Origin: an uncultured Pseudomonadota bacterium
GTDB taxonomy: Bacteria > Pseudomonadota > Gammaproteobacteria > Methylococcales > Methylomonadaceae
Direction: 5' to 3'
DNA length: 64,000 nt
Assembly (NCBI GenBank): GCA_903928965.1
Contig: CAIYSZ010000087.1
Coordinates: 1 to 64,000 of the forward strand
The notes below the pieces were generated by a model, which made no database searches, had not been told where the DNA came from, and saw only the letters and a list, made by a program, of their open reading frames with translations. The position numbers were made by a program, and so were the translations under genes. Positions 101 to 15,863 of the stretch are shown one piece after another (position 1 is the stretch's first letter; every line of letters begins with the position of its first letter).

Positions 101-376
101 TTAGGCCACATTTACGCTCTTCAGCACATAATTGACGATCGCGGCCGAAATACGAAATTCCGAGTTATACAAGACTGTAGAAGCGACGTGAGCCGATTGT
201 ATTAAACCTTGCCTTTTGGCTATCCCAATAATTGCGACCGTGCCAATGACACGCAAACCTTTTTCATTTGCCACCGCTCGACCGGCTCGTTCGTCCATGA
301 TTAAAAGCACTTGATCGGGGTCACTTAAACCTATGTTTATACAGTCTGTTTCTCCTGCATACAGGTCTAACTCCAA
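101..376 (-). pseudogene. C-terminal fragment of DUF3368/PIN-like (VapC-type) toxin
   Basis: ORF translation contains 'ELDLYAGETDCINIGL...LLIMDERAGRAVANEKGLRVIGTVAIIGIAKRQGLI...FRISAAIVNYVL', typical of the C-terminal half of DUF3368 proteins; the usual N-terminal PIN portion is not visible upstream. Confidence 0.65.
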
Positions 377-580: not shown

Positions 581-865
581 ATGACTAAACGGCAACTTTA
601 TCTGGCGGCGTATGATATTTCTTGCAATCGGCGGTTGCGCAAGGCGCTGCGCGTGTTGCGCGGTTATGCCTCGGGCGGGCAAAAGTCGGTGTTTGAGTGT
701 TTTTTGACCGATGCCGAGAAAACACAATTACTGGAACAAATGGCCCAAATCATAGACCCGGAGGAAGATCGTTTTATTGTGCTGCGTTTGACATCCGTTA
801 AACATATTAGGGTGTTGGGTAAGGCTGTTCCGCCGCAGGATGGTTCGTTTTATTACGTGGGGTAA
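581..865 (+). CDS. cas2: CRISPR-associated endoribonuclease Cas2 (copy A)
   Basis: MTKRQLYLAAYDISCNRRLRKALRVLRGYASGGQKSVFECFLTD... : Cas2 YDI and GGQKSVFEC motifs; start placed at the internal ATG at 581. Confidence 0.92.
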   Translation: MTKRQLYLAAYDISCNRRLRKALRVLRGYASGGQKSVFECFLTDAEKTQLLEQMAQIIDPEEDRFIVLRLTSVKHIRVLGKAVPPQDGSFYYVG

Positions 866-1825
866 TTGATGGGCAGTTTGTATTTGGATAGAAAAAATTT
901 AGGCATTAAGTTAGACGGTCAGGCGCTGGCGCTGTATGAGTCTGGCGAGCGTAAGGGTTCCGTGCCGTTGCATTTGATTGAAAGGGTGGTGTTGCGCGGT
1001 AATGTGCAACTTGAAAGCAGGGTGTTGGGGGCGTTGAGCGAGCGGAATATCGGTCTGCTGGTTTTGTCCGGGCGTAATACCGAGGCGACGGCGATGTTGG
1101 CCGGCCGGGCGCATGGTGAAAGCGCTAGGCGGATGGGTCAATATTGCGTCAGCCTAGACGATGATTTGCGCACGCCTTTGGCGCGCTGGCTAGTGTTGGT
1201 GAAGGTGCGTTCGCAGCTTGGCTTGTTAAGGCGGGCGTTGGCGGGACGGCCTGATTTACGGCTGCCATTGACTGGGGCTATTCAGTCCTTGTCCGGTGTT
1301 TTGGAGCAGTTGCGGGAGGATAAGCTTGTGATTAGCCTTGAAAGTCTGCGCGGTTATGAGGGCGCCGCCGCCGCGGCTTATTTTGGCGGGTTTACTAAGT
1401 TATTTTCACCGGCGTTGAATTTTAACGGTCGCCGCAAACGCCCGCCGCCGGACCCGGTGAATGCTTGTCTGTCGCTGGGTTATACCTTGTTGCATTATGA
1501 TGCGGTAAGGGCGTGCCATATTGTCGGGCTGGACAGCATGTTGGGTTTTTATCATGATCTTAGTTTTGGTCGAGAATCCTTGGCTTGCGATTTGATGGAG
1601 CCCTTACGGCCTGTGTTGGACGGCTGGGTGTGGCATTTGTTTCGGGAGCGTGAGTTGCGCCCGGAGCATTTTAGTGACGATAACGGACGCTGTTTGCTGA
1701 ATAAAACCGGCAGGCAGCGGTTTTACGCATTTTATGAGTCGCACGCGCCTTCCGCGCGCCGGTTGCTGCGGCGTTATGGGCATGCCTTGAGCCAGCGGTA
1801 TCAGTTGGTTTACGAGGCTCGTTAA
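866..1825 (+). CDS. cas1: CRISPR-associated endonuclease Cas1 (copy A, active-site motifs present)
   Basis: 'RGYEGAAAAAYFGGF', 'HIVGLDSMLGFYHDLSFGRESLACDLMEPLRP' match the Cas1 catalytic E / H / D-E regions; ATG directly follows the cas2 stop. Confidence 0.95.
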   Translation: MMGSLYLDRKNLGIKLDGQALALYESGERKGSVPLHLIERVVLRGNVQLESRVLGALSERNIGLLVLSGRNTEATAMLAGRAHGESARRMGQYCVSLDDDLRTPLARWLVLVKVRSQLGLLRRALAGRPDLRLPLTGAIQSLSGVLEQLREDKLVISLESLRGYEGAAAAAYFGGFTKLFSPALNFNGRRKRPPPDPVNACLSLGYTLLHYDAVRACHIVGLDSMLGFYHDLSFGRESLACDLMEPLRPVLDGWVWHLFRERELRPEHFSDDNGRCLLNKTGRQRFYAFYESHAPSARRLLRRYGHALSQRYQLVYEAR

Positions 1826-2568
1826 TGCGTCCGTTGTATATTGATGGTTCAATCGGTTGCCGGGTGGTGTGGGATGAACCGGCTCTGCGGGTTTCGGTCG
1901 CGGATAAGGCTGATCAGTTGTTTCCGGTGTCCAGGGTTTCCAGGGTAGTTTGCAAGGGGGTGGTGGAGTGGTCCATGTCTGCGCTTTTGGCGTGCGCCGA
2001 TGCAGGTATTTCGGTTTTGTTTTTAGAGAAAAACGGCGAACTCCGCGCCAGGTGGTTGGGCAAGGCCGGTGAGCGGCAATTTTTGACGCAACGTTTTGCT
2101 GATTTGCTGGCCCGTTCAGACGGTCCTGCTTTGTATGAGAATTGGACGCTGTCGATGGAAAAGCTAGCAGCGCGTAGTTTCGCGCGGCGTATCGGTTTGC
2201 CTGATTGGCGTGAAATTCCGGTGGCGTCGTTGCGCCGGCAAGTCTTTGTCAGTTTGCAGAGTGAGGGGCGGCAGCGGGCGAATATGTTGGAAAACATTTT
2301 GCACGCAGAATTGCTGGTTTGGTTGCCCGAAGCGGGTTTTGCCGGCGATGATGAGGGCTTGGCGGCTAGCGGCCCAGATTTGGCTGTATTTTTGAGTCGG
2401 TTGTTGCTGTGGGATTTTTATCCGGCTTTGTTGGATGACCAATTTAACGCCGATATGACGCCCATGCAGGCCATGGGGCAAGTGTTTCATCAGCAGGCTG
2501 ACCGCTGTTATTTGCTGTTCCGAGGAACTATCAATAAATTGCAGCAGTTTTTGCTATCGGTAAGCTGA
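1825..2568 (+). CDS. Second, shorter Cas1-like protein (Cas1'), apparently lacking canonical catalytic motifs
   Basis: Overall Cas1-like layout ('LYIDGSIGCRVVWDEPALRVSV...LFPVSRVSRVVCKGVVEWSMSALLACADAGISVLFLEKNGELRARW...MEKLAARSFARRIGL...') but no 'EG..A' or 'GfxH....DL.E' motif; start overlaps the cas1 stop (TAATG). Confidence 0.75.
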   Translation: MRPLYIDGSIGCRVVWDEPALRVSVADKADQLFPVSRVSRVVCKGVVEWSMSALLACADAGISVLFLEKNGELRARWLGKAGERQFLTQRFADLLARSDGPALYENWTLSMEKLAARSFARRIGLPDWREIPVASLRRQVFVSLQSEGRQRANMLENILHAELLVWLPEAGFAGDDEGLAASGPDLAVFLSRLLLWDFYPALLDDQFNADMTPMQAMGQVFHQQADRCYLLFRGTINKLQQFLLSVS

Positions 2569-2882
2569 TGGCGGACAACAAACCGGGATTATATTTGATC
2601 GCCTATGATATCGCCCATCCGCGGCGTTTGGGCAAGGTGCATCGCATTTTAAAGAAACAAGGCTTGCCGGTGCAGTATTCGGTTTTTACCGTGGTCATGA
2701 AACGGCCGCGCTTGCTGCGTTTGCTGGAGAGCATTGAACGGCAGATTGAAACAGCCGAGGACGATGTGCGTTGTTATAGCTTGCCGGTTAAGACTGACAT
2801 GGCGGTTTTGGGGAGGCAGTATTTTCCGGATGATGTGATGTTGTTTACCGGCGGGGTGAACAGGATTTTGGGGGGGCGTTGA
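2568..2882 (+). CDS. cas2: CRISPR-associated endoribonuclease Cas2 (copy B)
   Basis: 'LYLIAYDIAHPRRLGKVHRILKKQGLPVQYSVFTVVMKRPRLLRLLESIERQIETAEDDVRCYSLP' is a Cas2 fold signature; start overlaps the upstream stop (TGATG). Confidence 0.9.
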   Translation: MADNKPGLYLIAYDIAHPRRLGKVHRILKKQGLPVQYSVFTVVMKRPRLLRLLESIERQIETAEDDVRCYSLPVKTDMAVLGRQYFPDDVMLFTGGVNRILGGR

Positions 2883-2968
2883 TACCCGAAAATTTGATTA
2901 AAGCGGGAACTATGATACTATTTTGGCGGCATAAGCCTGATTTGCCCAACAAGTAAACCGGAGAATTT

Positions 2969-3091
2969 ATGACAGACGCACAACACATGTTAGAATATCT
3001 TGTTTTTTTAATTGGTTTTTGGAATATTGGCAAGTGGTGTTACCGTAAGTGGAAATACTTTTTCGGCAAGGAAGGTTTTGATAGCGATTAG
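2969..3091 (+). CDS. Putative 40-aa small protein
   Basis: MTDAQHMLEYLVFLIGFWNIGKWCYRKWKYFFGKEGFDSD*, preceded by a GGAG-type RBS (accggagaatttATG). Not in the supplied ORF track because it is short. Confidence 0.35.
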   Translation: MTDAQHMLEYLVFLIGFWNIGKWCYRKWKYFFGKEGFDSD

Positions 3092-15311: not shown

Positions 15312-15863
15312 TTGTTCAACTACTTGCGCGATAGCATGAAACGCATGCCGAAAAAACAACTAACCGCCGCTGCCTTGTTGGCGTTGGCCGGCTGCGCGCC
15401 GATGCCGGTATACCGGCATGCCGGGCCATATTATGGCCCGCAACCGTCCGCGCCGTACCCGATTCCCGAGACGGCGGCGCCTTACTCATACTATGATTCG
15501 GTCCCCAGTACCTTGATTGAGCCCGTTCCTGTCCCGATTCCGGGCGGCGGGTGGGGGAGACCTTACCCATTTAGCGGGCAGGCATTCAGAGGGCAAGAGT
15601 TTAGAGGACAAGAATTTAGAGAGCCGGAATCCAGAGGGCAGGAATTCAGAGAGCAAGAGTTTAGAGGGCAAGAATTCAGGGGACAAGAGTTTAGAGGGCA
15701 AGAATTCAGGGGACAAGAGTTTAGAGGGCAGGAATCCGGAGGGCAGGAATTCAGGGGACAAGAGTTTAGAGGACCTGAATCCAGGGGCCCGGAATCCAGG
15801 GGGCCGGAGTCTAGAGGACAAGAATTCCGCGGCGGCGGTTATCGGCGTTTTGGCCGGGAATAA
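15312..15863 (+). CDS. Lipoprotein with C-terminal tandem pentapeptide repeats (RGQEF)
   Basis: Lipobox 'LALAGC' (N-terminal Met uncertain) and about 18 repeats of RGQEF/RGPES-type units. Confidence 0.7.
   Translation: MFNYLRDSMKRMPKKQLTAAALLALAGCAPMPVYRHAGPYYGPQPSAPYPIPETAAPYSYYDSVPSTLIEPVPVPIPGGGWGRPYPFSGQAFRGQEFRGQEFREPESRGQEFREQEFRGQEFRGQEFRGQEFRGQEFRGQESGGQEFRGQEFRGPESRGPESRGPESRGQEFRGGGYRRFGRE
15585..15830. repeat. 15-bp tandem repeat array (consensus AGAGGGCAAGAATTC / AGGGGACAAGAGTTT)
   Basis: Directly visible 15-nt periodicity inside the lipoprotein gene. Confidence 0.92.

What the first reader, a model, noticed from the sequence alone, without database searches (positions are those of the whole stretch)
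581..2882. Double adaptation module: cas2-cas1-cas1'-cas2' with two different Cas2 and an apparently catalytically dead second Cas1
Seen in sequence: four directly abutting or overlapping genes (stop/start at 865/866, TAATG at 1825, TGATG at 2568), suggesting translational coupling. Cas2A and Cas2B are clearly different sequences. Cas1A keeps E ('RGYEGAAA'), H ('GFYHD') and acidic ('LACDLMEP') motifs; Cas1' is shorter (247 aa) and keeps the Cas1 layout but lacks recognisable catalytic motifs. Established knowledge: canonical Cas1-Cas2 integrase is Cas1(4)-Cas2(2) from one gene each. Inference: the two pairs may form a heteromeric integrase in which Cas1' is structural or selects orientation, prespacer or PAM, or Cas2B bridges a separate complex. 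I cannot establish novelty without a search.
Basis: partly seen in the sequence, partly recalled or inferred. Interest (0 to 1): 0.88.

Follow-up and report, generated by a model that had tools for sequence, protein, structure and literature searches.

The report
CRISPR integrase with a dead partner
Methane-oxidising and many other proteobacteria store CRISPR memories with a conserved four-gene set that holds one working integrase subunit (Cas1), a second Cas1 that has lost its catalytic residues but is kept by selection, and two different Cas2 proteins, which suggests a built-in asymmetric memory-writing machine that apparently nobody has studied.

Summary
Window 581-2882 encodes cas2A-cas1-cas1'-cas2B, tightly packed. 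It is the adaptation module of a type III-A (Csm) system whose effector operon lies on another contig of the same genome. The same four genes recur in about 46 loci examined across Pseudomonadota, always in this order where contigs allow (one rearrangement), next to either Csm (III-A) or Cmr (III-B) effectors. Cas1 keeps E, H and D in 42 of 42 loci. Cas1' has a confident Cas1 fold but lacks the glutamate helix, and no acidic residue or histidine is conserved across 42 sequences. Yet it is under purifying selection and co-diversifies with Cas1 (r=0.94). It is not decay and not unique. PADLOC already holds a model, 'Cas1, diverged variant, second in the loci', matching all 24 Cas1' scanned, so the protein is catalogued; I found no paper on it or on the dual-Cas2 module. 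'Two pairs' is too simple: cas2A-cas1-cas2B without Cas1' occurs (Aeromonas, Sphaerotilus, a relic), nested in the four-gene clade, so Cas1' was lost secondarily. Best reading: a heteromeric integrase in which Cas1' fills the non-catalytic Cas1 position. The assembly itself is inferred, not shown.

The parts
581..865 (+). cas2A, 94 aa Cas2, first gene of the module; GGQKSVFEC motif and C-terminal YVG conserved
   Evidence: PF09827 1.8e-15; alignment A3 of 16 relatives
869..1825 (+). cas1, catalytic Cas1 (frame opens with TTG at 866; ATG at 869 matches relatives); E165, H230, D242, E245 counted from 866
   Evidence: PF01867 5.7e-72; E/H/D kept in 42/42 module Cas1; AF2 model pLDDT 85.5, Foldseek best hits I-C Cas1
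1825..2568 (+). cas1', 247 aa catalytically dead Cas1 paralogue: N-terminal beta domain plus shortened helical domain
   Evidence: PF01867 1.4e-7 over the N-domain; PADLOC PDLC01185 in 24/24 members; AF2 pLDDT 89.3, pTM 0.86; Foldseek top hits are Cas1/casposase, prob 1.00; no conserved acid or His in 42 sequences; dN/dS 0.07-0.21
2568..2882 (+). cas2B, 104 aa Cas2, last gene of the module, different from Cas2A
   Evidence: PF09827 1.1e-14; alignment A4; profile-profile A3 vs A4 98.9%

Best explanation
This is the spacer-acquisition module of a type III CRISPR-Cas system. Cas1 supplies the catalytic sites. Cas1' is an ancient, non-catalytic Cas1 paralogue that keeps the N-terminal dimerisation-type domain. 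It most likely takes the place of the two 'non-catalytic' Cas1 protomers of the standard (Cas1)2-(Cas2)2-(Cas1)2 integrase, so that each Cas1-Cas1' heterodimer has one working active site per prespacer end. Cas2A and Cas2B probably form the central bridge as a heterodimer. The fixed division of labour would make the integrase asymmetric, which could help define prespacer length or orientation. Shown: gene content, order, spread, loss of catalytic residues, selection, co-diversification, effector context. Inferred: heteromer formation, stoichiometry, functional benefit.
For: Four-gene order conserved in 42 complete loci (39 by automatic count; 2 of the other 3 are artefacts of open-frame limits; 1 real rearrangement, L029) and in 4 more cut by contig ends. 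22 of 369 sampled genomes of the class, 15 families, plus 4 genomes outside the class. Cas1' never found without Cas1 and at least one Cas2 where the contig allows. Cas1 E/H/D 42/42; Cas1' none. Cas1' fold: pLDDT 89, Cas1 hits prob 1.0; 12 of 16 conserved positions lie in residues 3-57. Purifying selection; Mantel r 0.936 Cas1-Cas1', 0.87-0.92 Cas1' with the Cas2s. Arrays beside intact modules are long with nearly all spacers distinct (121, 82, 63 repeats). Published: each Cas1 dimer in integrases has a catalytic and a noncatalytic monomer (PMC6977970), and a non-catalytic Cas1 contacts the repeat (PMC6895254).
Against: No complex was modelled or measured. Cas1' is absent from three loci nested inside the four-gene clade, one of them (Aeromonas pMC64A) with complete III-B effectors and an array of at least 25 repeats, so it is not universally needed. 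Both Cas2 remain there, so Cas2B is not tied to Cas1'. The tree position of Aeromonas is weak. dS is near saturation. Mantel values show joint inheritance, which any operon would give.
Confidence: 0.55

Rival explanations
1. Cas1' is an accessory subunit outside the core: Cas1 with Cas2A/Cas2B forms an ordinary integrase, and Cas1' (alone or on Cas2B) helps with prespacer capture, trimming, leader recognition or handing over to the type III effector.
For: cas2A-cas1-cas2B without Cas1' exists with intact effectors and an array. Both Cas2 are the more constant feature and occur also in cas2-cas2-cas1-RT loci. Cas1' evolves faster than the other three (mean distance 0.70 vs 0.46-0.56).
Against: Cas1' keeps the dimerisation-type N-terminal domain as its most conserved part, and is retained in nearly all lineages with both effector types.
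Confidence: 0.25
2. Cas1' or Cas1'-Cas2B is a brake: a dead integrase that competes with Cas1 and limits spacer acquisition or self-targeting.
For: Dead paralogues of multimeric enzymes can act dominantly (general knowledge); all four genes are closely packed or overlapping, suggesting a fixed dose.
Against: No direct evidence. Arrays next to intact modules are long and diverse, and the relic with truncated cas1' has one repeat, not a longer array.
Confidence: 0.1
3. Cas1' is a decaying duplicate of Cas1 with no function.
For: Catalytic residues lost; cas1' reduced to a remnant in G210; faster evolution.
Against: dN/dS 0.07-0.21; open frame in tens of genomes of many families; confident compact fold; a curated family profile exists.
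Confidence: 0.02
4. Cas1' has a new, different active site.
For: Some acidic positions (D185, D/E197) are kept within Methylococcales and near relatives.
Against: Across 42 sequences no position is at least 90% acidic and no His is conserved.
Confidence: 0.03

Closest known systems
PADLOC PDLC01185 'Cas1, diverged variant, second in the loci'
   Same: Same protein family: all 24 Cas1' scanned match it, best 6.7e-20; the description names exactly this position in the locus.
   Different: Only a profile; no function, no mention of two Cas2 or of lost catalysis in what I could read.
Canonical Cas1-Cas2 integrase (E. coli I-E, E. faecalis II-A, I-C Cas4-Cas1-Cas2)
   Same: Cas1 and Cas2 folds; in known complexes only two of four Cas1 act catalytically (PMC6977970).
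   Different: There the catalytic and non-catalytic protomers are the same protein and the two Cas2 are identical.
Type III-A and III-B adaptation modules
   Same: Located with cas6, NE0113/Csm6 ring nuclease, cas10, csm or cmr genes, CARF effectors and an array.
   Different: Usual modules have one cas1 and one cas2, sometimes RT-Cas1 (general knowledge).
cas2-cas2-cas1-RT loci (G424 contig 368, G075)
   Same: Two different Cas2 beside one Cas1.
   Different: A reverse-transcriptase frame follows cas1 in G424 and there is no Cas1'; Cas1 belongs to a separate clade.

Membership tests
Cas1 (PF01867) | Cas1 fold: N-terminal beta domain plus C-terminal helical domain | tested here: met
   Cas1' AF2 pLDDT 89.3 and PDB Cas1 hits at prob 1.00; PF01867 above cut-off
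Cas1 (PF01867) | Catalytic Glu-His-Asp/Glu residues | tested here: not met
   Cas1' lacks the Glu in all 24 aligned and has no conserved His there; no conserved acid or His in 42; adjacent Cas1 keeps E/H/D 42/42. Cas1' is therefore a Cas1 homologue, not a Cas1 enzyme
Cas2 (PF09827) | Match over the curated cut-off | tested here: met
   Both Cas2A (57.3 bits) and Cas2B (54.8 bits) exceed 23.8
Type III-A CRISPR-Cas | cas10/csm1, csm2, csm3, csm4, csm5 in the locus | tested here: met
   Own genome contig C80 carries them, ending in leader plus one repeat. The link to the window contig is inferred from synteny with G026; in L024 all lie on one contig
PDLC01185 diverged second Cas1 | Profile match and position second after cas1 | tested here: met
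   24/24 match, position after cas1. For the window protein the margin over ordinary Cas1 models is small (33.9 vs 32.5 bits)
Heteromeric Cas1-Cas1'-Cas2A-Cas2B integrase | Physical complex | not testable with these tools
   No multimer prediction available

The most novel reading that the evidence does not exclude
An obligately heteromeric, asymmetric CRISPR integrase (Cas1, Cas1', Cas2A, Cas2B), in which a dead Cas1 and a Cas2 heterodimer fix which end of the prespacer goes where, giving type III systems spacer orientation without PAM or Cas4.
Probability: 0.2. Interest if true: 0.82.

Novelty: new variant of a known kind. Interest (0 to 1): 0.62.

Why it matters
Cas1-Cas2 is treated as one symmetric machine built from one gene each, although only half of its Cas1 subunits act. 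Here evolution seems to have split the acting and non-acting subunits into two genes and split Cas2 as well, in many families and with two effector types. That gives a natural tool to ask what the non-catalytic Cas1 does, and how type III systems orient spacers.

Tried and rejected
Pseudogene: rejected by dN/dS, conservation and fold. Alternative active site: no conserved acids or His in 42 sequences. Two matched pairs: rejected because Cas2B persists without Cas1'. Mobile or viral origin: no Cas1' relative in plasmids or viral contigs. Using Foldseek scores to decide whether Cas1' resembles the catalytic or non-catalytic conformer: scores differ between chains of one complex, but a monomer prediction cannot settle this and I could not map chains to roles. 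Alignment of the D/E positions in Cas1' depends on the method, so I rely on lack of conservation. Some A1 hits (L073-L080) are ordinary Cas1, not Cas1', and were excluded. Paper searches found no description of this module; two phrase hits for 'diverged cas1' in the 2025 classification paper turned out to be 'diverged Cas10'. A PNAS 2018 paper that may be the source of the PADLOC profile (recalled, not checked) is not held, so the novelty claim is limited to the open-access library. Phyla beyond Pseudomonadota were not scanned for Cas1', apart from the plasmid and viral collections.

Full report
The observation. Pfam, NCBIfam and PADLOC confirm Cas2, Cas1, a Cas1-like protein matched only over its N-terminal domain, and Cas2.

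Context. The window is the start of contig C87 of a draft genome. The same genome has one Cas10 gene, on contig C80. That contig carries cas6 (by position and similarity to relatives; no NCBIfam hit), an NE0113/Csm6 ring nuclease, cas10/csm1, csm2-csm5, a TIGR02710 CARF protein, a CARF-adenosine deaminase and a CARF-nuclease-like protein (the last named by eye), and ends in a leader with one repeat. In the relative G026 the same effector genes run through the same leader into an 82-repeat array and then into cas2A-cas1-cas1'-cas2B. In L024 array, four genes and csm operon lie on one contig. So the window module belongs to a type III-A system split by an unassembled array; that join is inferred from synteny.

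Conservation. Thirteen genome loci, all named as Methylococcales, Methylococcaceae, Methylobacter or Crenothrix MAGs, and 14 of 61 near relatives carry Cas1'. A profile scan of 369 genomes of the class gave 26 matches; 22 (15 families, own genome included) are true Cas1' loci and the rest are ordinary Cas1. A phylum sample gave four more outside the class. Of 46 loci collected, 42 hold all four genes and the other four are cut by contig ends. The order is cas2A-cas1-cas1'-cas2B in 39 by automatic count; two others (L060, L067) look different only because open frames were taken stop to stop; L029 is a real swap of cas1 and cas2A. Effectors beside the module are Csm in Methylococcales, G128, G258 and G355, and Cmr in G182, G209, G183, G250, G413, G332, G424, G180 and G526.

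Dead Cas1'. Module Cas1 keeps Glu, His and Asp in 42 of 42 loci. In joint alignments the glutamate has no counterpart in any of 24 Cas1'. In 42 Cas1' no position is 90% acidic and no His is conserved; 12 of 16 conserved positions lie in residues 3-57. The AlphaFold model is confident (pLDDT 89.3, pTM 0.86), and Foldseek returns Cas1 and casposase at probability 1.00. Compared with the Cas1 model the helical domain is shorter. Purifying selection is clear (dN/dS 0.07-0.21, dS near saturation). The four proteins co-diversify (Mantel r 0.85-0.94), as genes inherited together should.

Exceptions that matter. Module Cas1 forms a distinct score class (at least 325 bits for complete genes in the class sample, against 207 and below for others; the Aeromonas one scores 300). 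Three members lack Cas1': an Aeromonas media plasmid with complete III-B genes and an array of at least 25 repeats, a Sphaerotilus plasmid with only a short array, and G210, where cas1' is cut to about 21 codons and only one repeat is left. All keep both Cas2 types, and all fall inside the four-gene clade of the Cas1 tree, Sphaerotilus within a subclade of 99% support, Aeromonas weakly placed. Hence Cas1' was probably present at the base of the clade and lost a few times. A separate Cas1 lineage has cas2-cas2-cas1, followed in G424 by a reverse-transcriptase frame (RT recognised by its FADD motif by eye).

Mechanism. In known integrases each Cas1 dimer has a catalytic and a noncatalytic monomer (PMC6977970), and the noncatalytic Cas1 contacts the repeat (PMC6895254). 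A Cas1 paralogue that lost catalysis but kept its N-terminal domain fits the noncatalytic seat. I therefore favour a Cas1-Cas1' heterodimer on each side of a Cas2 pair, probably Cas2A-Cas2B. None of this assembly was tested. The main rival is an accessory role outside the core, favoured by the Cas1'-less loci.

Known or new. PADLOC model PDLC01185, 'Cas1, diverged variant, second in the loci', matches all 24 Cas1' scanned, so the protein was noticed before. I found no paper describing its loss of catalysis, the paired Cas2, or a named subtype, within an open-access library only. I file it as a new variant of a known kind.

Noticed in passing
L026 1356-2147, L025 3930-4715; L027 has a similar gap (Crenothrix and other Methylococcales MAGs): A histidine kinase gene (HisKA plus HATPase_c) lies between cas1 and cas1' on the same strand; a sensor kinase inside an adaptation module is unexpected.
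   Followed up: partly
L128 (G424 contig 368) 1000-3662; L133 (G075) 1318-3055: A related layout cas2-cas2-cas1, with a reverse-transcriptase frame after cas1 and an array in G424: two different Cas2 but no Cas1'.
   Followed up: partly
L129 13260-14291 (Aeromonas media pMC64A): A toprim-domain gene lies between a cas2-cas1-cas2 module and a complete III-B operon on a plasmid.
   Followed up: no
window 101-376, minus strand: Short DUF3368 reading frame upstream of cas2A, near the contig end.
   Followed up: no
L040/L003 (G000 contig 48) 1-1491: The same genome has a second array with a GAAACACCCCCACGGGCGTGGGGAAGAC repeat and a separate Cas1 hit nearby, probably another CRISPR type.
   Followed up: no
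window 15540-15847: Tandem array of 15-base units (14 overlapping copies in register).
   Followed up: no
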